Shown here one piece after another: positions 2,167-36,382 of a DNA stretch of 42,810 bases (position 1 is its first letter; every line of letters begins with the position of its first letter). The DNA lies in contig JAAYTL010000010.1 in NCBI GenBank assembly GCA_012518035.1, forward strand, positions 1-42,810, in the 5' to 3' direction. The notes below the pieces were generated by a model. The model was given only the letters and a program-made list of their open reading frames with translations. It ran no database searches and was not told the origin of the DNA. This DNA is from Tissierellia bacterium. Lineage in GTDB: Bacteria > Bacillota > Clostridia > Tissierellales > Tissierellaceae. The position numbers and the translations under genes are program-made.

Positions 2167-3768
2167 ATGAGGAAATATTTCGTATTTCTAATTACAATTG
2201 TATTAGTGATAAGTGTCTTTTCTGAGTCTTCTTATGCAGTAAAGGATACCTATAGGGTTGCAGGTGATAGCCATTTCCCGCCCTATGAGTATATCGATGA
2301 TGATGGTGTTTACAAGGGCTTCAATGTTGACATGCTTAAGGCCATTAGCCTAGTAACTGGACTAGAATTTGAATTCTACCCAATGAAGTGGGAGGATGCC
2401 TACTATTCTATTGAAAAGGGACAAGCTGATATAATCCAGGGCATGAAGGAATCCGAGGAAAGGAAGGCTAAATTCCTCTTCTCTAAATCTCTACTATTGA
2501 ACTCCCAATCTATATTTGTCTTAGATAGTAATACAAGCATAAACACTGAAAGGGACTTAGATGGTGAAACCATAGCCTTGCTCAAGGAGGATATTATTTA
2601 TGAGGAAATAAGTAGAAAATATGATGCTAAGATAATAGAGTATGATTCCATTGAAGCTGCCTTGGATGCCCTATTAAAAAGTGAAGTTGACGTTCTGATT
2701 GGTAACACCTTAACCATAAACTACTTAAGTAAGGAAAAAAATTGTATAGAGCAAATTAAGATAGTTGGTCATTCCCTAAATGAACAGAGATATTGTATAG
2801 CAGTAGATAAAAACAACGAATACCTAATAGAAAGACTTAATGCTGGCATCACTGAAATCCAAAAAAGTGGCATCTATGATTCCTTGTATAGAAAGTGGTT
2901 TGGGACACCTATAAAGAACACAAAAGACCAATATGAAACCCTACTGAAAGTAACTATAGTAAGCACCTTGGCCTTTACGGTATTAATCATCATAATCCAG
3001 GGGTTAAATAGAAGACTTAAATATATAGTTGAAACAAAAACAGAAGAGCAGAAAATCCTTATTAATGAGCTAAGACATTATGACAAACTACAATTTATGG
3101 ATAAGATTATATCATCCATTGCCCATGAGATACGAAATCCCCTGACCTCAATAAAACTATATACTACCCAGATGAAGGATAGGTTAGGAGATGAGCAGTT
3201 TATCCTGGCAGCATCTGAAGATATCCCAGAAGAGATTGATAGAATCGATGAACTAATCAAAGAGTTTATGGAATATACATCTCCTAGAAAACCAATGATA
3301 GAGAGCTTTACCTTATATGATGAATTAGTAAAGGCCTTAAAACTTGTGAAATTTCATATAGAAGATATCAATTTTGTTCTAGACATAGATAAATCTTACA
3401 TTGTAAGATTTGACCAGGGACATTTTAAGCAGATTGTATTGAATATCCTTCTAAATAGCATTGATGCAGTAAAAACTTCAGATATGCCCACAATAAAGAT
3501 AAGTGCAAGGGAAGGCCAGGAATATATCTCTCTTTATTTTCAAGATAACGGCCCTGGGATGGATAAAGATAATCTACAATATATTTTTGAGCCATTCTAC
3601 ACTACCAAGGAATATGGAAATGGTCTAGGCTTGTTTATTGTAAAACAACTGGTGGATGAAAATGAAGGCATGATCTCTGCCTCCATCCCAGGTGAAGGGA
3701 TGGGTATGACAATCACTTTAAAGTTAAAGAAGGGTGGGCCATATGAAGAACAAACTCCTAATAATTGA
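2167..3768 (+). CDS. Membrane histidine kinase with extracellular amino-acid-binding (SBP_bac_3) sensor domain
   Basis: A 533-residue protein. In order: signal peptide (1-24, ending SSYA), a family-3 solute-binding domain at about 28-243 (opening with HFPPYEYIDDDGVYKGFNVDML), one membrane helix at about 259-280, a short coiled coil, a HisKA domain with the H-box SIAHEIRNP (phosphorylated H320), and an HATPase domain with N-box (N430) and the G boxes DNGPGMD and GNGLGLFI. The binding domain resembles those of polar amino-acid transporters, so it probably senses an extracellular amino acid or derivative. It ends 26 bases inside the response-regulator gene, forming a two-component pair, and the operon downstream is the likely target. 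The 5' region (1978-2166) has a TATAAT-like element near 2110 but no convincing -35 box. Confidence 0.92.
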   Translation: MRKYFVFLITIVLVISVFSESSYAVKDTYRVAGDSHFPPYEYIDDDGVYKGFNVDMLKAISLVTGLEFEFYPMKWEDAYYSIEKGQADIIQGMKESEERKAKFLFSKSLLLNSQSIFVLDSNTSINTERDLDGETIALLKEDIIYEEISRKYDAKIIEYDSIEAALDALLKSEVDVLIGNTLTINYLSKEKNCIEQIKIVGHSLNEQRYCIAVDKNNEYLIERLNAGITEIQKSGIYDSLYRKWFGTPIKNTKDQYETLLKVTIVSTLAFTVLIIIIQGLNRRLKYIVETKTEEQKILINELRHYDKLQFMDKIISSIAHEIRNPLTSIKLYTTQMKDRLGDEQFILAASEDIPEEIDRIDELIKEFMEYTSPRKPMIESFTLYDELVKALKLVKFHIEDINFVLDIDKSYIVRFDQGHFKQIVLNILLNSIDAVKTSDMPTIKISAREGQEYISLYFQDNGPGMDKDNLQYIFEPFYTTKEYGNGLGLFIVKQLVDENEGMISASIPGEGMGMTITLKLKKGGPYEEQTPNN

Positions 3769-5086
3769 TGATGAGGTTAAGATCCTAAGATCACTTAAGT
3801 TTCTCCTGGGAGATGAATTTGATGTCTACACTAGTGACAATTCTTTAGAAGCCTTGGAGATTTTTAAAAAAGAAGGGATATTTTTAGTCCTCCTTGATTT
3901 AAGATTAAAGGAGGGTAATGGCTTTGAACTAATGAAGGAGCTATTAGAGTACCAACCTGATGCAATAATTATAATGATGACAGCCTATTCAACTATAGAA
4001 AACTCCATAAAGGCTATTAAGGCTGGTGCCTATTATTTTATAACCAAACCGATTGATAATGACCAGCTCTTATTACTCTTGCATACAGCAGATGAAAAGC
4101 TAAGAATGTATCAAAAAATTAATAGTCTTGAGGGACACTTAAAAAAGGATCTTATAGGCAACTCACCACCTATACAGGAGATAAATGATATTATACTTAG
4201 AATCAAAGATACCAATGCTACAGTTCTCATAACAGGAGAAAGTGGCACGGGTAAGGAGCTGGTTGCTCAAAAAATTCATAGAACCAGTAATCGGGCGGAC
4301 AAGCCATATATCTCAATAAATTGTGCAGCCATGCCAAACGAGCTCTTAGAAAGTGAGTTGTTTGGCTATAGGAAGGGGTCATTCACAGGTGCCTATAAGG
4401 ATGAAATAGGTATAATAAGAAGAGCTGATGGGGGGACCCTCCTCTTAGATGAAATTGCTGAAATGGACTTAGAACTACAATCAAAGTTACTTAGGTTTTT
4501 ACAGGAAAGGGAGGTTAGGCAAATAGGAGATGCCATCTCCCACCCTGTAGATGTAAGGATAATATGTATTACTAACAAGGACCTAATGAAGGAAGTGGAA
4601 AGCGGGAGGTTTAGAGAAGACCTATACTATAGAATAAACGTAATAAATATTGTAGTACCACCCCTGAGAGAGCGTAAAGACGACCTAAAGCAGCTAATTT
4701 CCTATTTCATTGATAAGTATAATATATCTTTTAATAAGCATATTAAAGGTATTACAGATGAAGCCTTTGATATACTTAGTAATTATAGCTATAAGGGGAA
4801 TGTAAGAGAATTAGAGAACATAATTCAAAGGGCAGTTCTTTTAAGTACCCTAGACTATATTGATACCAATGTACTCCATATTAGTCCATCTGATATAAAC
4901 AATAACTCTAACATTTCTACTAAAAACTATATTAAGGTATATGAAGGTGAAACCTTAAAACAAGTAGAAAAGAAGCTTATAAAGTTTGCCTTAGATACCA
5001 ATAACCAAAACAGGAGGTTGACAGCTAAAAGTTTGGGTATTGCAGAAAGAACTCTAAGATATAAAATTAAGGAATATGATTTATAA
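3743..5086 (+). CDS. NtrC-family sigma-54-dependent response regulator
   Basis: 447 residues from the ATG at 3743, which is well spaced from AGGGTGG; an in-frame GTG at 3734 is less likely. The receiver domain has the acidic pocket IIDDE and phospho-acceptor D52 (LLDLRLKEG). The AAA+ domain has Walker A GESGTGKE from G165, the sigma-54 contact loop as GSFTGA (212-217, a conservative variant of GAFTGA), Walker B LLLDEI and arginine fingers. The Fis-type helix-turn-helix is at the C-terminus (RLTAKSLGIAERTLRYKIKEY). It overlaps the sensor gene by 26 bases. A consensus -24/-12 promoter and paired dyads lie immediately downstream, so it very probably activates the gltS-ftcD-fchA-hutD operon. Confidence 0.95.
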   Translation: MKNKLLIIDDEVKILRSLKFLLGDEFDVYTSDNSLEALEIFKKEGIFLVLLDLRLKEGNGFELMKELLEYQPDAIIIMMTAYSTIENSIKAIKAGAYYFITKPIDNDQLLLLLHTADEKLRMYQKINSLEGHLKKDLIGNSPPIQEINDIILRIKDTNATVLITGESGTGKELVAQKIHRTSNRADKPYISINCAAMPNELLESELFGYRKGSFTGAYKDEIGIIRRADGGTLLLDEIAEMDLELQSKLLRFLQEREVRQIGDAISHPVDVRIICITNKDLMKEVESGRFREDLYYRINVINIVVPPLRERKDDLKQLISYFIDKYNISFNKHIKGITDEAFDILSNYSYKGNVRELENIIQRAVLLSTLDYIDTNVLHISPSDINNNSNISTKNYIKVYEGETLKQVEKKLIKFALDTNNQNRRLTAKSLGIAERTLRYKIKEYDL

Positions 5087-8671: not shown

Positions 8672-8680
8672 GTTATAGGA

Positions 8681-8713
8681 AAGTAGTAGATTATTATTAA
8701 TCTACTACTTTTT
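8681..8713 (+). terminator. Terminator of the gltS-ftcD-fchA-hutD operon
   Basis: A perfect 13-bp stem (AAGTAGTAGATTA with its complement at 8698-8710) closes a 4-base loop and runs into a T tract. It separates this operon from the kinase/helicase cassette. I see no feature between 8714 and 8870. Confidence 0.85.
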
Positions 8714-8870: not shown

Positions 8871-8899
8871 TTGCAGAAATCAACATAATTCGATATAAT
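8871..8899 (+). promoter_or_regulatory. Likely sigma-A promoter of the kinase-helicase cassette
   Basis: A perfect -10 box TATAAT (8894-8899) has a weak -35 TTGCAG (8871-8876) at 17 bp. The predicted start near 8906 leaves a leader of about 35 bases before the ATG at 8941. It is the only good promoter seen ahead of the five overlapping genes. Confidence 0.5.
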
Positions 8900-8940
8900 A
8901 ATTCTTGTTGGTAAGAATATGCAAATCTAGAGGTGAGCCT

Positions 8941-10296
8941 ATGTCAGTAAACTTTTACGAGAGAATCACAGAGGACGGAAACTTTTGGTTTATGAAGAAT
9001 ATTAATCGTAGGATTTATGAAAACCTTTTTGAAGCCGAAAGTAATGCCTTGATTGACTTTGTAGCAAGTGGCGTTAAAATCAGAGATGCCCTTGAAGTAA
9101 TTATCGATTCAATAATTAAAGACCATGGCCTAGGAAGCCAAGTTTCAGGAACCCTATATGAAAAAATATCCTTCCTTAAAAAGGACAAGTCAATACTGCC
9201 TGACCTAGGTATTGTCAAATTTCAATTTGATAATGGTAAATTAGGTAAGGCCGATTATTATACATACATAAGGCGGTTTGGTAATAGCTGTGCACATGAG
9301 TCTGATTCAATTATGGAAAGGATTAAAACCGATTATCCCCACCTAATCCAATGCCTAAAGTGCTTTCATGAATTTTTACTTAGCTACTATTCAAAGAGAA
9401 TCCACAAGGCAACCCCATCCTTTAATGAAAACCTAATGCCAATCAGAAACTACCATATAAGAGAATCATTCGTACCTAAGGATATACATAGGTCCAAGTG
9501 TAATAGGGAATATGTGGGATTTCGAAAGGGTTCCACAGGTAGGTTTTCCTATGCAGTATTAAGAAGGTATAATAAGGAGGACCTAAATGAAGAATTTCTC
9601 CTTCGTAATGCAGTTACCTTCCAAGAAGCCTCACATTACTCCATAAGTACTCCAGAAGGTATGGCACATGTGAGGGAGGTTGTCACCTATACTGACAACA
9701 GAAGCTCCTTCTACATCATTGCCTATGAGTTTAACAGGGAACCCCATATGCTTAATGATAAGATTCTCAAAGAAATGGATTTAGGTAAAAGGGTAAAACT
9801 CTGTAAGAGGATTGCAGACTCCTTCTATGACCTACATAACTACGAAGTTCCCATCTACCATAGGTTGCTTTCCCATGAGAGTATTTATGTTTGTGACTTT
9901 GGCAAGGAATGGGTGCCCTATATCGTGAAATTAGACTTTGCAAAAATCGATTCTGCAGATATGGCCACTGTATTTATGGATGTATTGAGTGCTAAGGAGG
10001 CTCTGGAAGAGGCCAAGTTAACTAAATACATTGCCCCAGAGTGGTTGTCAGCAGATGACTCAAAGAACCTTGATTGGGGGAAGATGGACATATACTCCCT
10101 AGGGGTGCTCTTCTGCGATATTCTAAGTGGAAGGATTAATACCAATATCGTAGACTTTGATGAACTTGAAGCAATGGACTTATCCGATGATATGCTGGAT
10201 CTCCTGGATATGATGTTGGCCGAATCACCTTCCTATAGGTGTGATATGGAAGTTGTTAAACTAGTAGTTGGGGAGGAGGCTGCGCTTTGGACATAA
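8941..10296 (+). CDS. HEPN-like domain fused to a pseudokinase
   Basis: 452 residues from the ATG at 8941, which has AGAGGTGAG upstream; an in-frame TTG at 8905 lacks a ribosome site. The first 150 residues are all-helical and carry R112-FGNSCA-H119, the Rx4-6H signature of HEPN RNase-like domains (DUF4145-type). Residues of about 180-450 follow a protein-kinase fold (IIAYEF hinge, IYSLGVLFCDILSG helix F), but the catalytic residues are degraded. The expected beta-3 lysine is arginine (VLRRY), the HRD loop reads HRLLSHES (from H307) without the aspartate, and DFG is DFA (D332). This suggests a non-catalytic kinase domain that may sense ATP or bind the kinase encoded next. It is first in a five-gene run and overlaps the next gene by 10 bases. 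Confidence 0.65.
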   Translation: MSVNFYERITEDGNFWFMKNINRRIYENLFEAESNALIDFVASGVKIRDALEVIIDSIIKDHGLGSQVSGTLYEKISFLKKDKSILPDLGIVKFQFDNGKLGKADYYTYIRRFGNSCAHESDSIMERIKTDYPHLIQCLKCFHEFLLSYYSKRIHKATPSFNENLMPIRNYHIRESFVPKDIHRSKCNREYVGFRKGSTGRFSYAVLRRYNKEDLNEEFLLRNAVTFQEASHYSISTPEGMAHVREVVTYTDNRSSFYIIAYEFNREPHMLNDKILKEMDLGKRVKLCKRIADSFYDLHNYEVPIYHRLLSHESIYVCDFGKEWVPYIVKLDFAKIDSADMATVFMDVLSAKEALEEAKLTKYIAPEWLSADDSKNLDWGKMDIYSLGVLFCDILSGRINTNIVDFDELEAMDLSDDMLDLLDMMLAESPSYRCDMEVVKLVVGEEAALWT

Positions 10297-11174
10297 GGTT
10301 TTCAAAGGACCATCATTATAGATTAATCGATGAATCAAAGATAGAAACGGATTTAAGTGTTATCTACAAGGGCCAGGACCTAGAATTAAGTAGGACGGTT
10401 TGTGTGAAGTCCATCCAGCTTGATTGTCAGAACCCTAATCAGGTTAAGCCTAAACTGAATAGGGCTATGTTGGAGGTAAAAACCATGGTCAGGGTAGGGG
10501 AAAAGACTTCCAGGGTACCTAGAATCTACTCTACCTACTTCGATGAAACTAGCCTAACCCTCTATATTATTATGCAGTGGATTGATGGGACTAGCCTTGA
10601 AAAAAAGATGAATGTACCGGAGCTAATGTTCATACGTTGGATGATAGACCTCTGTGACATCTTGGCTATTATGGAGAGGGAGAGACTCTATCATAAGGAT
10701 ATCAAGCCTTCCAACATCATGATAAATAGGAGGAATGAGCTCTACCTTATAGACTTCAATATCTCAGTTTCCAAGCCCAATATGATAGAAGGGACGGTAA
10801 ACTATAAACCTCCTGAAATGGACATGAACTCTAAATATGTAGGCAGGGAAAAGGTGGATATTTTTTCCATAGGGGTAATGCTCTATGAATACTATGCTAA
10901 AGAGGTCCCCAAGAGGGGGTTCGATTATGCTAAAAATTCCCGAAGGGGCAAGCTCGCGTGGGATGTCTTTAAAGAGCCCATTAGCAAAAACCTCCAAACA
11001 CCTAGGGAAGTAAATAACATTGTTATCAAGTGCATGAAGATGGATCCCAGGGAGCGCTATCGGAACATTTCAGAGTTAAAGCGGGATTTAATACAAGCTG
11101 AAAGGAGCATAAAAAAACATGCCAGAAACCAATACAAACAAGACAAGCCTATTCAAGGAGGAGTTCAAGACTAG
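10287..11174 (+). CDS. Ser/Thr protein kinase (Hanks type)
   Basis: 295 residues from a TTG at 10287, with GGAGGAGG 7 bases upstream inside the previous gene. Catalytic features are intact: beta-3 lysine in RTVCVKSIQ, hinge IIMQWIDG, catalytic loop YHKDIKPSNIMIN (from H136), metal-binding DFN (LIDFNIS, a DFG variant common in bacteria), a TVNYKPPE activation segment, and DIFSIGVMLYEY. There is no transmembrane segment or PASTA repeat, unlike housekeeping PrkC kinases, so it is a soluble kinase dedicated to this locus. It probably phosphorylates a neighbour such as the pseudokinase, small protein, helicase or winged-helix protein. It overlaps both flanking genes. Confidence 0.88.
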   Translation: MDIRFSKDHHYRLIDESKIETDLSVIYKGQDLELSRTVCVKSIQLDCQNPNQVKPKLNRAMLEVKTMVRVGEKTSRVPRIYSTYFDETSLTLYIIMQWIDGTSLEKKMNVPELMFIRWMIDLCDILAIMERERLYHKDIKPSNIMINRRNELYLIDFNISVSKPNMIEGTVNYKPPEMDMNSKYVGREKVDIFSIGVMLYEYYAKEVPKRGFDYAKNSRRGKLAWDVFKEPISKNLQTPREVNNIVIKCMKMDPRERYRNISELKRDLIQAERSIKKHARNQYKQDKPIQGGVQD

Positions 11175-11304
11175 ATTAAGGAATCAGGATTATCTTGAAT
11201 TACCTGATGAATTGGAAATTAAACCTATTAAAGTAGAAAAAATAGAGAAATGGAGCAAATTAGAATGGCAGGATTTGTTAGCTTTAAACAAGAAGCAAGA
11301 CTAG
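11119..11304 (+). CDS. 61-residue charged protein nested between kinase and helicase genes
   Basis: A small ORF starting at an ATG with AGGAG 11 bases upstream. It overlaps the kinase gene by 56 bases and the helicase gene by about 40-55 bases. The product (MPETNTNKTSLFKEEFKTRL...) is highly charged, predicted helical, and has alternating Lys/Glu and two Trp (KWSKLEWQDLL) near its C-terminus. It resembles no family I know. Its place in the coupled gene chain suggests it is translated and could link kinase and helicase, or relay translation between their genes; chance is not excluded. Confidence 0.5.
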   Translation: MPETNTNKTSLFKEEFKTRLRNQDYLELPDELEIKPIKVEKIEKWSKLEWQDLLALNKKQD

Positions 11305-14300
11305 TAGGTTATATTAGATTTTCCATAACTAAAGGGGCCTTTGGCAGGATGTCCTCCCATGAAAAAGGTGTAGGACCCTTACTTACAAGCTTGTCTGCTA
11401 GAAATATCCTCCTTATAACAAAGGGTAGGGACCAGGGCCTCTATGAAGTACATACTGATGATGGTATTTATCTTTGTAGGATAACGGATGATAGGCAATC
11501 TTTCTTAATAATAGGGTTTAATCAAAACACCTTGATAAGGCAAAACAACGCCTTAAAGAATGGGATATGCTTTAGGGTTGATCGGGGAATAATCATTCAG
11601 ATCAAATTAACGGAACCCTATAATTATTTTTTTGACATAGTTAATGGTAGACAACTCAGTATGAATAGGTATGAAAACCAATCAGTATCTAGTTCGATTA
11701 ACATTGTAGAGACTGAGCTGGCATTAGTTGATACGGTTGAAGATGAAGAGGAAATAATCGATGAAGAATATGAGCCAGTAAAGCCCCTGGCAAATCTCCT
11801 GGAGGTTGCAGAGAAGTATGCTATCCTGTCCAGCGAATTGGAGGAGTTAAGGGCCCACGCTGCTGACAAGGTGTCCTACTTTACCATCAAGCCCCTGGAC
11901 TATGACAGGATTGACAGGGTAGCCTATGAGTTTGAGGTGGATGATATTGATGTCAACCTATTTAAAATGGGGACCAAGGTAGACGTGGAGGATGGCCAGG
12001 GGCAAAGGCACTCTGGTGAGATTATCAGCCTAGAAACGGAGTCGGATATTAAGTCCATGGGAATCCTTTTCCATGACCAGATAGATATCAGGGACTTCCA
12101 CGAAGCGGGTTGGATTAGTCTTTCCTTCTCCAGCGTAAATAAGGATGTCCAGCTGGCAGCCATAGAGAAGATTAGGAGTGGAGAGGCTGCTGCCAAGTAT
12201 ATGGACAGGGTACTGGGTAAGGGTGAGACATCAGGTTTTGAAGACAAGGACCTTGGGTCTGTGGAGGAAGCCTTATCCAAGCAGAAGTACCCACCTAATG
12301 AAAGCCAGATGAAGGCTATCAAGGCAGGTATCAACACTAAGGATGTCTTCCTGGTTATGGGGCCACCAGGGACGGGTAAGACCACCGTTATCCTGGAATG
12401 GGTAAGATACTTTGTCAAGCATGAGAAAAAGAGGGTTTTGGTTTCCTCTCAAAACAACAAGGCAGTGGACAATGTTATAGCCAGGATAGCCGATGAAGAG
12501 GATATTGACGTTATCAGGATTGGTTCAGAGTCCAAACTCCAGGCAGAGATAATACCCTTTATGTTCGAAAACAAGGTTAGGTCACTGAGGAAGCATATAG
12601 TTAATCATACCCAAAAGAACATGGAGGAAATTCTTAATATCAAGAAACCTTGGGACGATTTTATCCAAGAATTAAACCCCTTAACAGGTCTTAATGTTGA
12701 AGTTGAAGGCCACAGGGAAACCCTCAATAAGAGGCTGGATCAGGACCTAGTGCCAATGTATTTAGAACTTATCGATAAATATAAGGAGCACCACTACCTA
12801 GTCCAAAGGTCAGAGATGCTGGAAGGTAAGATCAATAAAGGGATTGGGAAAATTGAAAACTATCAAGGGACCAGTTCTATGTATAAGAAGGTGTTTGGCT
12901 TTATACTAAAACTAATCACTTCCTTTATTCTTAATAGGAATATGAAAAAACTCTATAACCTCAAGGAGAGGGAAATCTTTATAGTAACCTCCTATAATGA
13001 AATGAAATTTAATTTCAACCAGCTATACCAAACTATAGAGGAAGTAGAGTTTGATACTTTCTTTAATACAAAAGTAAAGAGGGACAAGGTTGCTGAGGAG
13101 GTATACACCAGGACTCCTGAGACAGCCAATAAATGGGATTTGTTTAAAGTAGACTTGGAGTTAGATATTTTCACAGACAACAGTAGGTTATTACCTACCT
13201 TACATTTTATTAACCAAGAGTCCTCTAGGGCTGAAAAATTAGTAGAGGCTATCGATTCCTGGAAATCCGAGACCCAGTCCAAGCAGAACTATGCCCTTAA
13301 CGAGATAGTCCTGGAATCTGTAGATCTAGTAGGGGCAACATGTATAGGTATCAACTCCCAGAAGAGGTTTGCAGACTTAAGTTATGACGTGACCATAATC
13401 GATGAAGCAGGTCAAATCCAGGTCCATAATGCCCTGGTGCCCATGAGTGTTTCCAACAAGCTAATCATGCTGGGTGACCACAAGCAGATTCCACCTGTGA
13501 CTGATGAGGAGCTAATCAGCCTATGCGAGGAAAACAATGTGGATCCGGAACTTTTGAACAAGAGTCTCTTTGAGAAGATGTACGATGACATGCCTGAATC
13601 CAATAAGCTCATGCTGGATACCCAGTACAGGATGCCTGCAGAAATTGCAGAGATTATTTCCCAATGGTTTTATGGTGGGAATTATCTTTCTGCAGATTTT
13701 AAGAAGAATACCAAGAGCGAGCTTCCCTTCTTATCTAGGCACCCCTTGGTGGTTATTGATACCTCCAAGGAAAAGGCTAGGTTCGAGCTTAAGTCCCCAG
13801 AAGGTGGAAGCAGCAATAAACTCGAAGCTACTGCCATTGCAGAGCTGGTAGAAAGAATCACCCAAAATCCTGAGATTGACTTAAATCAAATAGGAATCAT
13901 ATCTGCCTATAAGGCCCAGGTTAAGCTTATCAAGGATAAATTAATGAGCTTCTTAGAAAAGGATATAGTCAATGAAATGGTAGCTACCCTGGATAGCTAT
14001 CAAGGCCAGGAGCGGGACATCATAATCTATAGCTTCACCAAGAGCTCCAAGAGAAGCCCTCAATATAAGCGGATTGGCTTCTTGAATGAAATCAGGCGGC
14101 TAAATGTAGCTCTTAGCAGGTGTAAGAAGAACCTAATCCTAGTCGGGGATATGGACTTCTTATCAGGCTGCCAGCACATGGACCTAGATGACGACGGGGA
14201 GCCCATCTATGAAAAAAGTGAGAAACAGTTCTCTGATTTCATTAAACATATGATGAATAATGTGGAAGCCGGTAGTGGTGACTTGATTAGCTATAGCCAG

Positions 14301-14336
14301 TTTAAGGACAAGATTAGGGAAAGGAGCGAGGCCTAA
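11265..14336 (+). CDS. Upf1/DNA2-type superfamily 1 helicase (AAA_11/AAA_12)
   Basis: About 1,023 residues. I prefer the ATG at 11265, 9 bases after GGAG; an in-frame ATG at 11250 would add five residues, and residue numbers here count from 11250. The N-terminal ~190 residues are unassigned. A beta-barrel-like region at about 200-330 resembles the Upf1/IGHMBP2 accessory domain. The motor has Walker A GPPGTGKT (371-378), Walker B DEAGQ (from D718), GDHKQIPP, QYRMP (from 792), SYQGQERD and LNVALSR, which place it in the Upf1-like SF1B group that unwinds RNA or DNA 5' to 3'. The region between motifs I and II has an insertion with hydrophobic helices. No PLD nuclease motif was seen at the C-terminus. 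Its stop overlaps the next start by one base. Confidence 0.9.
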   Translation: MAGFVSFKQEARLVGYIRFSITKGAFGRMSSHEKGVGPLLTSLSARNILLITKGRDQGLYEVHTDDGIYLCRITDDRQSFLIIGFNQNTLIRQNNALKNGICFRVDRGIIIQIKLTEPYNYFFDIVNGRQLSMNRYENQSVSSSINIVETELALVDTVEDEEEIIDEEYEPVKPLANLLEVAEKYAILSSELEELRAHAADKVSYFTIKPLDYDRIDRVAYEFEVDDIDVNLFKMGTKVDVEDGQGQRHSGEIISLETESDIKSMGILFHDQIDIRDFHEAGWISLSFSSVNKDVQLAAIEKIRSGEAAAKYMDRVLGKGETSGFEDKDLGSVEEALSKQKYPPNESQMKAIKAGINTKDVFLVMGPPGTGKTTVILEWVRYFVKHEKKRVLVSSQNNKAVDNVIARIADEEDIDVIRIGSESKLQAEIIPFMFENKVRSLRKHIVNHTQKNMEEILNIKKPWDDFIQELNPLTGLNVEVEGHRETLNKRLDQDLVPMYLELIDKYKEHHYLVQRSEMLEGKINKGIGKIENYQGTSSMYKKVFGFILKLITSFILNRNMKKLYNLKEREIFIVTSYNEMKFNFNQLYQTIEEVEFDTFFNTKVKRDKVAEEVYTRTPETANKWDLFKVDLELDIFTDNSRLLPTLHFINQESSRAEKLVEAIDSWKSETQSKQNYALNEIVLESVDLVGATCIGINSQKRFADLSYDVTIIDEAGQIQVHNALVPMSVSNKLIMLGDHKQIPPVTDEELISLCEENNVDPELLNKSLFEKMYDDMPESNKLMLDTQYRMPAEIAEIISQWFYGGNYLSADFKKNTKSELPFLSRHPLVVIDTSKEKARFELKSPEGGSSNKLEATAIAELVERITQNPEIDLNQIGIISAYKAQVKLIKDKLMSFLEKDIVNEMVATLDSYQGQERDIIIYSFTKSSKRSPQYKRIGFLNEIRRLNVALSRCKKNLILVGDMDFLSGCQHMDLDDDGEPIYEKSEKQFSDFIKHMMNNVEAGSGDLISYSQFKDKIRERSEA

Positions 14337-15619
14337 TGAGCAAGAAAAACAAGGGTGGACTTAAGCGGAACGAGATGTATTTTGCCCTTAAGGAAATCCG
14401 TTCAAAATACAAGATAGATAACTCTGACATAGTCTTTTTTGCTCCTGTATATTATCCCATTGCAATTTTGGAGATCAACCTAGATGAAGTATCCTTTGAG
14501 GATTTTGAAGCTGTTCAATTAGCGGTACTTAGGTTTTACTCTTTAGGTATAAAAGACTACAATATGATAGCTGATTTGATGGGTCTAAGTCCCAATTATG
14601 TTTACAGGCTACTAAACCTATTAAGGGGATATGGACACATAGATGAAGCTGGTATAACAGAACTAGGACAGAAATCCCTAGAGGTAGAAAAAAAGATTAC
14701 CAAGGCCCAGGTCTGGCAAAAATTCCAGGTGGATGCCTTAAATGGAACCCTACTGAAGATGAGCGAGACGGTATCAGATAACGTCCTTAATGACAAGGGT
14801 GATACCAGCTTTATAGTTGGTCACTTGGATTATATAGATGGGATTAGTGTGGACTTGATCAGGATGCAGATAGAGGGAGAAGACTATAAGGACTACATCA
14901 AACGAGACTCGGATATCTTAAGTACCAACCTACTTGCCATTAATGATGTAAAATGCACCGATATCCTCTATGCTAAGAGCTTTATCTTGGGACTAAAGAG
15001 TGCAATTGAGCCTCTTATCTTTGCCAAGAGGTATGATAGCAAGAAGGAGAAGCTAAGTGAGAGGTTTACTTGGCTGCCCTTTAGCGTAGGGGATGAGTCC
15101 ATCAAGGCCAGGTATGGCATAGAAGACCAGGTGGGTTTGAGTACTGAGACTTCATCACAATATGCAAATGCTGTTTTAGGGTTAATCAATGATAGGGCTG
15201 CCAACCTTAATTTAGAGGAAGAGGTACACAAGGTATTACAAAGGACCTACCCCTTCAACCTAGATGAAGTGGAACTAGTCCAATCCTTTAATCCGGTCAT
15301 AGTAAACATCAACGAGAGGTCCTTTACTAGTTTTAGAAAGTGGATACTTAATTTTCTAATGGACTTGGTGGAGGACGGGGAAAGCCTGGTTTCCAATGAG
15401 TACCTATATGGGAATATCATTAAGCTACGAAGCAAGAGTGATAAGCTCTTTAAAACTGCAAATATCCTCAAGGGAAAGATAGCGGAGAAGGGAAGTAGGA
15501 GCAAGGTCTTCAATAGATTAAATGATGAGCTTAAAGATTTCCAGCCAAGGGAAGGCTTGGACTTAATTGATATGATTCATAAAACCTTAACTGGTGAGAA
15601 AGATGAAGATGTTGACTAG
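14336..15619 (+). CDS. Unknown protein with N-terminal winged-helix domain
   Basis: A 427-residue protein starting in the TAATG overlap with the helicase stop, so it is translationally coupled. Residues of about 60-125 form a winged helix-turn-helix (LAVLRFYSLGIKDYNMIADLMGLSPNYVYRLLNLLRGYGHID...ITELGQKSLE). The rest is soluble, mixed alpha/beta, with a hydrophobic strand (NPVIVNINERSF) and a charged helical tail. No catalytic motif stands out. It may be a nucleic-acid-binding adaptor or effector for the helicase. I do not recognise a named family. Confidence 0.65.
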   Translation: MSKKNKGGLKRNEMYFALKEIRSKYKIDNSDIVFFAPVYYPIAILEINLDEVSFEDFEAVQLAVLRFYSLGIKDYNMIADLMGLSPNYVYRLLNLLRGYGHIDEAGITELGQKSLEVEKKITKAQVWQKFQVDALNGTLLKMSETVSDNVLNDKGDTSFIVGHLDYIDGISVDLIRMQIEGEDYKDYIKRDSDILSTNLLAINDVKCTDILYAKSFILGLKSAIEPLIFAKRYDSKKEKLSERFTWLPFSVGDESIKARYGIEDQVGLSTETSSQYANAVLGLINDRAANLNLEEEVHKVLQRTYPFNLDEVELVQSFNPVIVNINERSFTSFRKWILNFLMDLVEDGESLVSNEYLYGNIIKLRSKSDKLFKTANILKGKIAEKGSRSKVFNRLNDELKDFQPREGLDLIDMIHKTLTGEKDEDVD

Positions 15620-15639
15620 GAGTCAGAGCTTCAATACTG

Positions 15640-15676
15640 ACCTCCTTTTAGGAATCTACCTAGAGGGGGTTATTTG
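15640..15676 (+). terminator. Weak terminator-like hairpin after the cassette
   Basis: ACCTCCTTTTAGG (15640-15652) pairs with CCTAGAGGGGGT (15659-15670), with some G-T pairs. It is followed by a poor T run (TATTTGC), so termination is probably partial. Confidence 0.4.
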
Positions 15677-15764: not shown

Positions 15765-16295
15765 GTGGAGGAGAAAATAGTCAAGTTAATAAAGCAAAAA
15801 GATGACGAAGGCTTAAAACTCTTGATGAGCAATTATTCAGGATTAATCCATTATATCGTAGGCAACATAATAAAGACCCAGGAAGACCTAGAAGAGTGTG
15901 TCAATGACATTTATATGAAGGTATGGAAGTCCATGGACTCTTATTCCAGGGAAAGAGGCAGCCTAACCACATGGATCACAGCCATTTCACGTAACAGAGC
16001 CTTAGATTATGTCAAAAGACAAGAAGGAGCCCATGAAGAGATAAGGGAAGAATTTGAAGATAAAACTACCACTGAGGGTGAAGTTATCAGGCGTGAAAAT
16101 ACAGATCAGCTAAAAATGGCAATAGCAAGACTTACAAGGGAGGAGCAACATATCTTCTATAGGAAGTATTATTACTTACAGCAGACCTCCCAGATAGCAT
16201 CAGAATTAGGTCTAACTGAAAGGGCAGTAGAGGGTAGGCTATACAGGATTAGGAAGAAGCTACAAGGAAGGTTAGGAGGGGATACTAATGGATAG
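15765..16295 (+). CDS. ECF-type RNA polymerase sigma factor
   Basis: 176 residues from a GTG placed 7 bases after GGAGG; the nearby ATG at 15763 is out of frame and stops quickly. Region 2 is clear (DLEECVNDIYMKVWKSMDSYSRERGSL with TWITAISRNRALDYVKR), as is region 4 (LTREEQHIFYRKYYY...IASELGLTERAVEGRLYRIRKKL). There is no extra domain. The following gene overlaps its stop by 8 bases and encodes a membrane protein, the standard arrangement for a sigma factor and its membrane regulator. Confidence 0.92.
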   Translation: MEEKIVKLIKQKDDEGLKLLMSNYSGLIHYIVGNIIKTQEDLEECVNDIYMKVWKSMDSYSRERGSLTTWITAISRNRALDYVKRQEGAHEEIREEFEDKTTTEGEVIRRENTDQLKMAIARLTREEQHIFYRKYYYLQQTSQIASELGLTERAVEGRLYRIRKKLQGRLGGDTNG

Positions 16296-17760
16296 GAAGG
16301 ATTTAATCTTTGAAGAAGAAATAATCCAAGGACTCAAGGATATAACACCACCTGAGGAAGAAATCCTAGAAATTAACCCATGGATGGTGCCCATTAGTTC
16401 AATAGCCTGGGGTTTGATACTGACCACCATCAGGCTGAATTTCCTCTTCCTCCAGTACCTTTTACCCACCATAGGGGTAGCCCTGACCTTCGTAGGATTT
16501 AGGAGTTTAAGGAATCAAAATAATTACTTTAGAGTGCTATACTATATATCCCTTGGAAGGCTATTACTTCATCTTGTGGACACCATAGTTATAGGCACCC
16601 CCCTAAACTTGATGGATATCCCAAGTCTAGGTATAGGGCTTGTAAGGCTTATTATCCAAGTATTTACCTTCCTGATTTTCCATATGGGCTTAAGGGAAGT
16701 TTATAAAGGTGCGGGAAGGACCATGGAGTTATCTCCCCTAGTCTGGGTCAGCCTGTGGACTATACTTGCATTTTTTATAGCAATTACACCTCTGGCTGAA
16801 ACATGGCTAGCCTTTTTACCCATGATTATTTTCTACATCTTAATTATAAAGGCCATCTTTTCCATAGGTGAAGACTTGGATGACACTGGATATCTGATAA
16901 AGAATGCTCCAGTTAAGATCTCCAATACTAGCCTTAGAAATATCTATCTTCTCCTGGTAGTGGTAGTTGGCCTAGGAAGTAATATGTATTTTAACAATCT
17001 TAAGCTAGATTCTCATGAATTTATACCTCCTGTAATCACTTCAATAAGGGAAGACCTTTTGAATAAGGGTTTCCCTGCAGAGGCCTTGAGATACTTGGCT
17101 GAGGATGATCTGGGATTACTAGGGGATGCTATAAATATAGAGGTAAAGAATGAACTATTGATGTTTGATCCTAGGGTGAGCCAAGAGGTTTCAGGCTCTG
17201 GATATTTTCAATCCATTACCAATACCCATGAGCCAGGCAAGACGAATATCGACTCAACAACCATATATATAGAGATGCCTGACAACGTCCTCTATGTCAT
17301 GCAATATTTCAAATGGAAGGGTGGAAGACCCATCTGGCAGGATGCCATCATGCTCACAGGACAGGATGAGGTGGAAGATAGGCAGATTATAAGTAGCAGC
17401 TTATTCTATAGTAAAAAGGATAAAGAATATAGGGCTAACTTTCCCCGTCTTATTATGGAAGGCGTAGAGAAGCAAAGTTTCTTTGGACCTAGCTGGATCG
17501 AGCCAATTAGGGCAAGTTTTAGTTTTCCACTAGGATCCAAGGATCAAGGAGGTTATATACTCTACCGCTATGGTAGGATGGAATCTGATATCTATCTGGT
17601 CCCTGTCCTATTTGAATATATTCACCAGAGCATTCCAATCAGGATACCCTATATAAGGAGCGAAGATTTATTCCTACAAGGAGGCTATGGTTTTTCTAAT
17701 AATTATAAGCAACACTACTCAACCTATGAGTCCTTGGGCATGAAAGAAGTAAGTGAGTAA
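16288..17760 (+). CDS. Polytopic membrane protein, candidate anti-sigma regulator
   Basis: 490 residues. A short acidic cytosolic N-terminus (KDITPPEEEILEINPW) precedes about seven hydrophobic helices between residues 33 and 235. A soluble domain of about 250 residues follows, likely extracytoplasmic. No zinc-finger anti-sigma (ZAS) motif is present. The 8-base overlap with the sigma gene and TAGGAGGG at the start show co-translation, so a role in sensing a surface signal and holding the sigma factor is plausible. I do not recognise a family. The C-terminal domain is rich in aromatic and charged residues with repeated short strands. Confidence 0.6.
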   Translation: MDRKDLIFEEEIIQGLKDITPPEEEILEINPWMVPISSIAWGLILTTIRLNFLFLQYLLPTIGVALTFVGFRSLRNQNNYFRVLYYISLGRLLLHLVDTIVIGTPLNLMDIPSLGIGLVRLIIQVFTFLIFHMGLREVYKGAGRTMELSPLVWVSLWTILAFFIAITPLAETWLAFLPMIIFYILIIKAIFSIGEDLDDTGYLIKNAPVKISNTSLRNIYLLLVVVVGLGSNMYFNNLKLDSHEFIPPVITSIREDLLNKGFPAEALRYLAEDDLGLLGDAINIEVKNELLMFDPRVSQEVSGSGYFQSITNTHEPGKTNIDSTTIYIEMPDNVLYVMQYFKWKGGRPIWQDAIMLTGQDEVEDRQIISSSLFYSKKDKEYRANFPRLIMEGVEKQSFFGPSWIEPIRASFSFPLGSKDQGGYILYRYGRMESDIYLVPVLFEYIHQSIPIRIPYIRSEDLFLQGGYGFSNNYKQHYSTYESLGMKEVSE

Positions 17761-26744: not shown

Positions 26745-27024
26745 GCATAGACTTTGAAGAGGAGAGTAGTTCTAGTAGGACTTCTAAAGCGAGTTCCAGG
26801 TGGTGAAAGGGAACGAAGGACCATTAGGATGAAGAGGGCCTCTGAGTTATGTACCGAGACTGGGTCAAGGCTACATCGGGTTCACCCGTTATAGTGATAG
26901 GGTATATTCATGTAGGAATGTACTCGATGAGGCATGTATTGTGAAATACATGTAAAATAGGATGGCAACACGAAGAATATCTCTCGTTCCTAAGAATAAT
27001 CTCTTAGGGATGGGAGTTTTTTTA
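26745..27024 (+). promoter_or_regulatory. T-box riboswitch upstream of the amino-acid-binding protein
   Basis: Stem I elements (GAAGAGGAGAGTAG and AGCGAG...GGTGGTGAAAGG) are present. The T-box AGGATGGCAACACG lies at 26959-26972. A terminator hairpin (about 26982-27016) ends in seven Ts. The T-box reads TGGC, not the TGGT of the other two leaders, so the tRNA should have discriminator G73. The specifier lies in 26827-26838. GAG or GAA (Glu) and GAT (Asp) fit both position and G73, while the Arg triplets in the same stretch usually go with A73. The amino acid is therefore not fixed; Glu is my preference. Confidence 0.88.
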
Positions 27025-31148: not shown

Positions 31149-31184
31149 GGGTTCTAATAATTCAAAAACAAGAAGTGCTTTAAT

Positions 31185-31448
31185 AAATGCAATTAGAAAG
31201 AGAAAGATATCACATACTTATTCAAAGAGAGCTAATGGTTGGTGGGAATTAGCATAAGTAGGATATGTAATACTAGCTTTCTGGCAGATTCGCTGAGAAA
31301 TCCAAAAGTAGGCGAATACGGAGCCACCGTTATATGGCTACTGGATGTTGGTCCAGGAAAATGAGGCAGGTTTCCTGCGAATTAGGGTGGTAACACGAGT
31401 ATAACCTTCGTCCCTATAAGTTTATCTTATAGGCACGGAGGTTTTTTT
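31185..31448 (+). promoter_or_regulatory. T-box riboswitch, leucine specifier (leu operon)
   Basis: Stem I pairs AGAAAG with CTTTCT and ACATA with TATGT. The specifier loop contains CTA (Leu) at 31273-31275, followed by a purine, in the same frame as ATC in the ilvA leader. The T-box AGGGTGGTAACACG is at 31384-31397; its TGGT fits the A73 discriminator of tRNA-Leu. The terminator stem (31405-31420 with 31426-31441, 15 of 16 pairs) ends in seven Ts. Uncharged tRNA-Leu would favour read-through into leuA. Confidence 0.93.
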
Positions 31449-36003: not shown

Positions 36004-36094
36004 ATTAGACTGGTACGTCTATGATTTTGATTATAAGTATTGACAAAGAAATCAAAGGGTGCTAACATACTTATAATTGAAAATTACCATATCA

Positions 36095-36382
36095 AAGTAA
36101 TGAGGGAGAGAAAGATACACTAAATTAATTACAGAGAACTGGTAAATGGTGAGAGCCAGAGTTAAAATGTGTATGTAATAATCACTCCTGAACTGTCGAA
36201 TTGAAATTGTGACCAACAAGAGTAAATGAAACCGGAATTCTCTTTGAGAAGTGCCACCGTTACATGGCTAGGGTTAAGGCATGGCCTGGACCTGAAGAGA
36301 CGACTAATGTGAATTAGTTGTAAACATGGGTGGTACCACGAGTTTATTCGTCCCTAGTATACTTGTATACTAGGGACTTTTT
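36095..36382 (+). promoter_or_regulatory. T-box riboswitch, isoleucine specifier (ilv operon)
   Basis: Stem I pairs AGGGAG with CTCCT and ATACAC with GTGTAT. The specifier loop has ATC (Ile) at 36181-36183 followed by A. The T-box GGGTGGTACCACG is at 36328-36340; TGGT fits A73 of tRNA-Ile. A perfect 13-bp terminator stem (36350-36362 with 36365-36377) ends in five Ts. Upstream, TTGACA at 36040-36045 has only a weak -10 (TAACAT at 17 bp), while a good TATAAT lies too far away at 36072, so the promoter is uncertain. 36383-36500 holds no further structure I can support. Confidence 0.93.

What the first reader, a model, noticed from the sequence alone, without database searches (positions are those of the whole stretch)
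8871..15619. Candidate undescribed defence-like system: HEPN-pseudokinase, Ser/Thr kinase, 61-aa protein, Upf1-like helicase, winged-helix protein
Five genes on one strand overlap at every junction (10, 56, about 40-55 and 1 base), start from one promoter and are bracketed by hairpins. The domain set (RNase-type HEPN fold, degenerate plus active kinase, SF1B helicase, wHTH) has no housekeeping pathway I know. Kinase plus Upf1-type helicase resembles Mokosh type I anti-phage systems, but I see no PLD nuclease motif in the helicase, and the HEPN-pseudokinase, small protein and wHTH protein are extra. A possible logic is helicase sensing of foreign nucleic acid, signalling by phosphorylation, and HEPN RNase toxicity.
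Basis: partly seen in the sequence, partly recalled or inferred. Interest (0 to 1): 0.85.

Follow-up and report, generated by a model that had tools for sequence, protein, structure and literature searches.

The report
Mokosh-like kinase-to-HEPN-RNase alarm cassette
Five overlapping genes in a bacterial genome pair a helicase and a winged-helix protein related to the Mokosh anti-phage system with a protein kinase of intact catalytic residues and a second kinase-like protein that lacks the catalytic residue and carries a likely RNA-cutting HEPN domain; the set is predicted to be an antiviral alarm that would stop the infected cell.

Summary
The five ORFs, their overlaps (10, 56, 40-55 and 1 nt) and their domains are there, and the unit is accessory: g5 is absent from the 59 other genomes, and each flank occurs without the cassette in a relative. 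The set HEPN-pseudokinase / kinase / (small ORF) / helicase / wHTH was found in nine distinct loci; in one the HEPN gene comes last, in one it is cut by a contig end. Distances of the four large proteins co-vary (Mantel r 0.83-0.91). The small-gene slot is under protein-level selection in the one pair tested (dS 1.0, dN 0.15).
But kinase and helicase are separate genes and no PLD match was found, so it is not Mokosh type I as defined. Two other loci carry a NERD domain in place of HEPN; in two species of one genus a related core sits beside Cas10-like and Csm4-like genes.
Most likely mechanism: helicase and wHTH protein sense, the kinase relays, the HEPN RNase acts. All of this is untested. 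New variant of a known kind.

The parts
8678..8713 (+). terminator-like hairpin after hutD, upstream boundary
   Evidence: fold -18.7 kcal/mol, z -6.0
8894..8899 (+). TATAAT, possible -10 element; no good -35
   Evidence: read; not listed by the consensus scan
8941..10296 (+). g1: HEPN (DUF4145-type, residues about 20-150) fused to pseudokinase (about 167-451); predicted effector
   Evidence: Pfam DUF4145 6e-4 and Pkinase 6.5e-5; PADLOC PglW 3.8e-11 and MkoA 5.6e-10 over the kinase-like part; R111-x3-N115-x3-H119 with N and H in 34 of 34 and R in 33 of 34 aligned sequences, HRD Asp absent in 34 of 34; kinase fold of residues 167-451
10287..11174 (+). g2: Ser/Thr kinase with K, HKD, N and DFN; predicted relay
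   Evidence: Pfam Pkinase 2.4e-27; catalytic Lys, Asp, Asn and DF[NDG] kept in the kinases of all 9 loci aligned
11119..11304 (+). g3: 61-aa protein, possible adaptor
   Evidence: a small ORF of 49-83 aa starts at the end of g2 in 8 of 9 HEPN-type loci and reaches g4 in 7 of them; none in L002 or in the two NERD-type loci, where g2 and g4 overlap (no chance control for the ORFs); dS 1.0, dN 0.15 between L003 and L004 in this frame only
11250..14336 (+). g4: Upf1/IGHMBP2-like SF1 helicase of the MkoA family, ATG 11265 the likelier start; predicted sensor motor
   Evidence: PADLOC MkoA 2.2e-113, MkoC 5.5e-42; Pfam AAA_11/AAA_12; all six helicase motif patterns tested are present
14336..15619 (+). 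g5: MkoB N-terminal domain with MarR-like wHTH (residues about 20-145) plus a C-terminal half of unrecognised fold without PLD match; predicted sensor partner
15638..15672 (+). downstream hairpin, weak terminator
   Evidence: z -2.1; listed at 15642-15669

Best explanation
The five genes at 8941-15619 likely form one antiphage module in which a helicase and wHTH pair of Mokosh kinship would sense foreign or abnormal nucleic acid and, through a kinase, switch on a predicted HEPN RNase held by its own pseudokinase. Shown by sequence and comparison: the gene set, its co-inheritance, its patchy distribution, the intact catalytic residues of g2 and the motifs of the helicase, the loss of the catalytic Asp in the g1 kinase-like half, the near-invariant HEPN signature, and a NERD domain in place of HEPN on a similar kinase-like / kinase / helicase / wHTH frame in two other loci. 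Inferred: the helicase with g5 engages foreign RNA or an RNA-DNA intermediate; this frees or activates kinase g2; g2 phosphorylates the pseudokinase part of g1 (or docks on it), which lets the HEPN domains pair and cut RNA, as the pseudokinase-KEN pair does in RNase L; the cell stops translation before phage is released. g3 is most simply an adaptor that ties kinase to helicase, since it lies between them and is missing where the two genes overlap directly (both NERD-type loci and L002).
For: Core kinship. Neighbourhood: an MkoA-type helicase adjoins the g5-like gene in 15 of the 18 distinct loci found with g5 profiles (maps; profile hits); of those 15, 12 have a kinase (9 HEPN-type, 2 NERD-type, 1 fused Mokosh), 2 have a Cas10-like gene and 1 has neither. 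Order g1-g2-(g3)-g4-g5 in 8 of 9 HEPN-type loci, one of these with g1 cut by the contig end; L006 has g1 after g5. Co-divergence: Mantel r 0.83-0.91, p at most 0.0012, 8 loci. Accessory: g5 in 1 of 60 genomes, the one being the window's own; 9 of 391 of the class, own included and one of them a weak match without cassette. Each flank without the cassette: hutD and its neighbours in L083 and L084, the ECF sigma pair in L076. Effector swap: NERD in L021 and L056; genome G549 carries a HEPN-type and a NERD-type cassette. HEPN signature. A fused Mokosh-type pair next to CBASS-type genes in a Nostoc plasmid. HEPN, NERD and tandem inactive and active kinases read as suicidal co-effectors: PMC10853773 passages. 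KEN domain of RNase L counted as HEPN: PMC3710099 passages; its pseudokinase is recalled knowledge.
Against: No activity is known for any member. The window's neighbourhood shows no clear defence gene, and of 10 large neighbours in five related loci only two, both beside L002, gave PADLOC matches, all weak or generic. The HEPN assignment in the window is below Pfam's cut-off, only 4 of 34 aligned sequences match DUF4145 at E 0.01, and the R to H spacing is 7 (R111), outside the canonical 4-6 unless the poorly conserved R112 is used; L055 has K in place of R. The HEPN fold was not tested apart from the kinase, which filled the structure lists. The NERD proteins of L021 and L056 keep the HRD Asp, so their kinase-like half may be active: 'dead kinase as holder' is shown for the HEPN type only. 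The ligand of helicase and g5 is unknown. That g2 acts on g1 is inference. L018, close to L021 by helicase, has neither kinase nor NERD gene beside it, and L077 has a g1-like gene without this helicase.
Confidence: 0.55

Rival explanations
1. It is a defence module, but the helicase with g5 is the main effector (clearing phage transcripts or replication intermediates) and the HEPN-pseudokinase is only a back-up suicide effector, as proposed for PglW and DndF co-effectors.
For: HEPN, NERD and kinases are read as auxiliary suicidal co-effectors in DndF and PglW (passages); the fused Mokosh-type pair has no HEPN match and keeps helicase and PLD.
Against: In this branch no nuclease other than the HEPN was recognised in the cassette, and the HEPN signature is nearly invariant, so the HEPN looks primary. 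The C-terminal half of g5 is unidentified and could hide an activity.
Confidence: 0.2
2. A kinase-gated HEPN toxin with antitoxin-like control (toxin-antitoxin or plasmid-stability type), not an infection sensor.
For: HEPN RNases are common toxins (PMC3710099 passages); kinase, g3 or pseudokinase could hold it inactive.
Against: The constant partners are a 1,000-aa helicase and a 400-aa wHTH protein with an MkoB domain, far more than a toxin-antitoxin pair needs; the nuclease domain is swapped while the helicase-wHTH core stays.
Confidence: 0.1
3. A housekeeping stress or RNA-processing pathway of some bacteria using an Upf1-like helicase and kinase signalling.
For: Codon usage of the cassette matches its neighbours (AGG share of Arg 0.56-0.75 in g1, g2, g4, g5 against 0.57-0.73 in the three genes just downstream), so it is not a fresh arrival; no clear defence gene lies nearby.
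Against: g5 absent from both congeners and the other 57 relatives searched; flanks occur without it; MkoA and MkoB kinship.
Confidence: 0.1

Closest known systems
Mokosh type I (MkoA kinase-helicase, MkoB PLD protein)
   Same: Helicase of the MkoA family (2.2e-113), a kinase also matched by MkoA (1.4e-23) and the MkoB N-terminal domain; helicase gene directly followed by the MkoB-like gene.
   Different: Kinase and helicase are separate genes; no PLD match; HEPN-pseudokinase and a small protein added. On the helicase tree of 23 sequences the nine HEPN-type helicases lie on one side of one branch (support 91) and the fused Mokosh set with L082 forms its own group (support 99).
PglW of BREX type 2 and DndF (NERD, inactive kinase, active kinase)
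   Same: Nuclease domain + inactive kinase + active kinase in series; g1's kinase-like half matches PglW (3.8e-11); HEPN is one of the DndF N-terminal domains (passages).
   Different: Two polypeptides instead of one; partners are an MkoA-type helicase and an MkoB-like wHTH protein; apart from the kinase-region matches to PglW, no other BREX or Dnd protein is among the listed PADLOC matches of the five.
RNase L / IRE1 (pseudokinase or kinase with KEN RNase)
   Same: HEPN-superfamily RNase domain joined to a kinase or pseudokinase (KEN of RNase L = HEPN: PMC3710099 passages; kinase parts recalled).
   Different: HEPN is N-terminal here; no 2-5A-binding repeats were seen; control inferred to come from a partner kinase and helicase. 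Works-like comparison only.
Type III CRISPR signalling (Cas10, Csm4, Csx1/Csm6)
   Same: In L019 and L020 a related helicase-wHTH core sits with Cas10-like and Csm4-like genes, in L019 also with a CARF-HEPN gene; an HEPN RNase would be the end effector in both designs.
   Different: No PF03787 match in either genome (0 of 2), though that search also missed the Csm4-like protein itself; a side branch, not the window's system.

Membership tests
Mokosh type I | SF1 helicase of the MkoA family | tested here: met
   PADLOC MkoA 2.2e-113 and 4.7e-94
Mokosh type I | kinase fused to that helicase in one protein (definition recalled; fusion seen in L044, L057, L078, L079, L081) | tested here: not met
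   kinase g2 and helicase g4 are separate ORFs; fused references
Mokosh type I | PLD nuclease partner (MkoB) | tested here: not met
   no PLD family among the matches listed for the five proteins (2 of 27 families of g4 not shown); MkoB profile matched only at 8-126 of 610; the Nostoc reference has PLDc_2. A PLD gene elsewhere in the genome was not sought
Mokosh type I | MkoB N-terminal domain next to the helicase | tested here: met
   4e-8; 3e-6, 6 of 8 g5-like proteins of other loci match MkoB, the two Cas10-type ones do not
Mokosh type I | protection against phage | not testable with these tools
   needs phage challenge
HEPN RNase (DUF4145 type) | profile match | tested here: inconclusive
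   20.2 bits against cut-off 23.1 in the window; 24.0 and 24.4 bits in L016 and L017; 4 of 34 aligned sequences at E 0.01
HEPN RNase (DUF4145 type) | Rx4-6H motif | tested here: inconclusive
   N115 and H119 34 of 34, R111 33 of 34 but spacing 7; R112 gives spacing 6 but is R in 14 and K in 12 of 34
HEPN RNase (DUF4145 type) | motif at the end of a helix, His at the start of the loop | tested here: met
   helix 106-118 followed by H119 in the predicted model; placement as described in PMC3710099
HEPN RNase (DUF4145 type) | fold match of the domain alone | tested here: inconclusive
   the lists were filled by kinases; the domain was not folded alone
HEPN RNase (DUF4145 type) | RNase activity | not testable with these tools
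   needs assay
PglW / BREX type 2 | full-length PglW | tested here: not met
   NF033442 36.7 bits (g1) and 45.5 bits (g2) against cut-off 990
MADS (MAD6 kinase) | MAD6 equivalog | tested here: not met
   NF047741 71.4 bits (g2) and 35.8 bits (g1) against cut-off 460
PD-T4-6 single-kinase system | kinase match as a stand-alone system | tested here: inconclusive
   g2 matches PD-T4-6 profiles (1.2e-30), as do other kinases here, such as the NERD protein of L021 (3.5e-20)

The most novel reading that the evidence does not exclude
The helicase-wHTH pair is an interchangeable sensor chassis of bacterial immunity: related cores plug into a phosphorylation relay ending in an HEPN or NERD nuclease on a kinase-like body, or into a crRNA-free Cas10-Csm4 cyclic-oligonucleotide relay ending in a CARF-HEPN RNase, so that bacterial counterparts of both arms of RNase L logic (pseudokinase control and oligoadenylate control) hang on one helicase family.
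Probability: 0.35. Interest if true: 0.88.

Novelty: new variant of a known kind. Interest (0 to 1): 0.66.

Why it matters
It would show how one immune sensor is wired to different killing devices, and it offers a testable bacterial case of a pseudokinase governing an HEPN RNase, the same pairing as in human RNase L. It would also split the current Mokosh label into a helicase-wHTH core and exchangeable output modules; today's MkoA and MkoB profiles match these proteins only in part.

Tried and rejected
Full Mokosh type I membership: rejected (no fusion, no PLD match). BREX/PglW and MADS membership: rejected on curated cut-offs; Dnd only by the absence of other Dnd matches among those listed. 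Phage-borne origin: one scan of viral contigs with the g5 alignment, by two short peptide patterns, found no relative. PDB sequence search with g5: one match, E 0.057, not used. Foldseek on the g5 model: no match at E 0.001, and the MarR-like rows cover 53-119 only; the C-terminal half is therefore untested, not 'new'. Structure lists for g1 were filled by kinases. MkoB family search of the class: 75 of 291 genomes, most listed matches lying in the PLD half of the profile and not followed. One search fetched seven stretches: G002 for the empty site, G324 from the g1 search, G272 from both, and G244, G456, G109 and G259 from the MkoB search; of the last five, G272, G244 and G109 show a fused kinase-helicase, G259 and G456 a helicase without a kinase match. 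L022, L058 and L059 were examined and do not show the cassette (two weak g5 matches, one contig edge). The g1-profile search (E at most 1e-12) gave 4 of 382 genomes: own, L017, L077 and the fused kinase-helicase of L078. L077 lacks an MkoA-type helicase in its 18.5 kb; the search missed L016, whose g1-like gene scores 6.5e-23 in my own scan, so it is not exhaustive. The collection scan also works by short peptide patterns and is not exhaustive. Papers: the original Mokosh paper is not held, so its definition is recalled; listings only; passages only of PMC12839542, PMC10952713, PMC11811056, PMC11291487, PMC3710099, PMC10853773 and PMC12988326. That the combination is not in print rests on those searches of open papers only. 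DefenseFinder models were not available.
Full report
OBSERVATION. The window holds five + strand ORFs at 8941-15619 (sequence). They overlap by 10, 56, 40-55 and 1 nt. The start of g1 is ATG 8941 by its closest homologue (P0074). For g4, ATG 11265 fits the N-termini of distant helicases better than 11250 (my reading). A strong hairpin (8678-8713, z -6.0) closes the hutD gene upstream; a weaker one (15638-15672, z -2.1) follows g5. A TATAAT lies at 8894-8899, but no + strand promoter was listed there, so 'one promoter' is plausible rather than shown.

HOST. 

HEPN AND PSEUDOKINASE. In the alignment of 34 sequences, window included (counts), N115 and H119 are invariant and R111 is kept in 33, with the motif at the end of a predicted helix and the His opening the loop, as described for HEPN domains (PMC3710099, passages). 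L016 and L017, not in that alignment, carry the same R-x3-N-x3-H; L055 has K for R. The spacing R111 to H119 is 7, longer than the published 4-6; R112 would give 6 but is R in only 14 of 34. Pfam DUF4145 scores 20.2 bits in the window (cut-off 23.1) and passes in L016 (24.0) and L017 (24.4); only 4 of 34 match at E 0.01. In the kinase half the catalytic Asp of HRD is replaced in 34 of 34, and an Arg (R208, 34 of 34) stands at the position I read as the VAIK Lys, while the DFG-type Asp is kept in 31 of the 33 rows that reach it. So g1 reads as a probable HEPN RNase fused to a dead kinase.

DISTRIBUTION. g5 was found in 1 of 60 genomes among relatives, the one being the window's own, two congeners being negative; in 9 of 391 of the class, own included, one of them (G128) a weak match without the cassette; and in 5 of 398 of the phylum, own included. 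The genes that precede the cassette (hutD by Pfam, and three upstream neighbours) are present without it in L083 and L084 (same family), and the ECF sigma and 490-aa pair that follows it is present without it in L076 (same genus). Codon usage of the cassette is like its neighbours. The unit is thus accessory but not freshly acquired. Of 10 other window proteins scanned with PADLOC, 2 match, both through domains I read as generic.

NEIGHBOURHOODS. Of 18 distinct loci found with g5 profiles, 15 have an MkoA-type helicase directly adjacent; the other three are two weak matches (L022, L058) and one at a contig edge (L059). The 15 fall into: HEPN-type, 9 (window, L002, L003, L004 with g1 cut by the contig end, L005, L006 with g1 moved after g5, L016, L017, L055); NERD-type, 2 (L021, L056; PF08378 2.6e-10 and 3.4e-13); Cas10-type, 2 (L019, L020); fused kinase-helicase with a PLD partner, 1 (L057); and L018 with neither. 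The kinase-like half of both NERD proteins keeps the HRD Asp, so it may be active, unlike that of g1. Genome G549, one contig, carries a HEPN-type and a NERD-type cassette. On a helicase tree of 23 sequences and 518 columns the nine HEPN-type helicases are separated from all others by one branch (support 91); NERD and Cas10 types with L018 form a group (support 100), and the fused Mokosh set with L082 another (support 99). Pairwise distances of g1, g2, g4 and g5 across 8 HEPN-type loci correlate (Mantel r 0.83-0.91, p at most 0.0012); a shared species history alone could give this, so it shows co-inheritance, not contact.

SMALL GENE. An ORF of 49-83 aa starts at the end of g2 in 8 of 9 HEPN-type loci and reaches g4 in 7 of them (in L016 it stops about 300 nt short); it is absent from L002 and from both NERD-type loci, where g2 and g4 overlap. 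No chance control was made for these ORFs. Between L003 and L004 its frame shows dS 1.0 and dN 0.15 (non-overlapping part 1.49 and 0.16), while the two other frames show no such excess. It is a real gene in that pair, and so probably in the window.

MECHANISM. I commit to this: helicase g4 with g5 senses, kinase g2 relays, g1 executes. The order of events is inference. The arguments are that the constant part is helicase plus wHTH; that the nuclease domain on the kinase-like body is exchanged (HEPN, NERD), as expected of an effector; that this body is accompanied by a second, intact kinase in both types; and that PglW and DndF carry the NERD, inactive kinase, active kinase series, read there as suicidal co-effectors (passages). 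The pairing of a dead kinase with an HEPN RNase recalls RNase L, a works-like comparison only.

SIDE BRANCH. In L019 and L020 (two species of one genus) a related core (helicase PADLOC MkoA 2.6e-116 in L019; wHTH found by the g5 profile at 3.1e-9 and 6.6e-9, but without a PADLOC MkoB match) lies with a Csm4-like protein (1e-5 and 5.5e-7) and a Cas10-like protein with GGDD (2.4e-26 and 4.3e-29), and in L019 with a CARF-HEPN protein (7.4e-31); the corresponding neighbour in L020 has no PADLOC match. PF03787 rings in neither genome (0 of 2), but that search also missed the Csm4-like protein, so other RAMP proteins are unlikely rather than excluded. No CRISPR-like array was seen in the two loci; L020 has one two-copy repeat. 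The Cas10-like gene was found in 2 of 32 genomes of that family, these two. This suggests that the core can drive different relays. It is the boldest reading and is untested.

NOVELTY. In the open-paper searches made I found no description of the HEPN-pseudokinase, kinase, MkoA-type helicase, MkoB-N cassette. NERD and PLD are listed for Mokosh type I in PMC10952713 (passage). Parts are known, so I file it as a new variant of a known kind.

Noticed in passing
L019 4831-12233 and L020 8169-14221: Mokosh-like helicase and wHTH genes beside Csm4-like and Cas10-like (GGDD) genes, and in L019 a CARF-HEPN gene; no PF03787 match in either genome and no repeat array in the loci.
   Followed up: partly
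L055 and L056 (genome G549): One contig carries both a HEPN-type and a NERD-type cassette; the g5 of L055 is extended to 733 aa with hydrophobic, membrane-like segments at its end.
   Followed up: partly
L018 7405-13169: Helicase close to L021's by tree, with its wHTH partner but no kinase or NERD gene beside it; a 304-aa protein with a zinc-ribbon-like start stands upstream.
   Followed up: no
L077 3827-10013: A g1-like pseudokinase gene beside a 1566-aa protein whose only clear Pfam match is an N-terminal kinase; a possible further partner system.
   Followed up: no
L047 8082-9851 and L045 7734-9981: MkoA-type kinase-helicases followed by an S1 RNA-binding protein (Mycobacterium gallinarum plasmid) or by a protein without Pfam match and a PP2C phosphatase (Agrobacterium plasmid) instead of a PLD protein.
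   Followed up: no
window 15765-17760: ECF sigma factor gene overlapping a 490-aa protein without any Pfam match; the pair is conserved in a congener (about 60% identity, L076).
   Followed up: partly
window 3734-5086: Regulator matching PADLOC RtcR/PspF-type CARF-AAA-HTH profiles (4.3e-106), mostly over what I take for the AAA and HTH parts.
   Followed up: no
window 26745-26994, 31183-31418, 36091-36358: Three T-box leaders above Rfam's cut-off.
   Followed up: no
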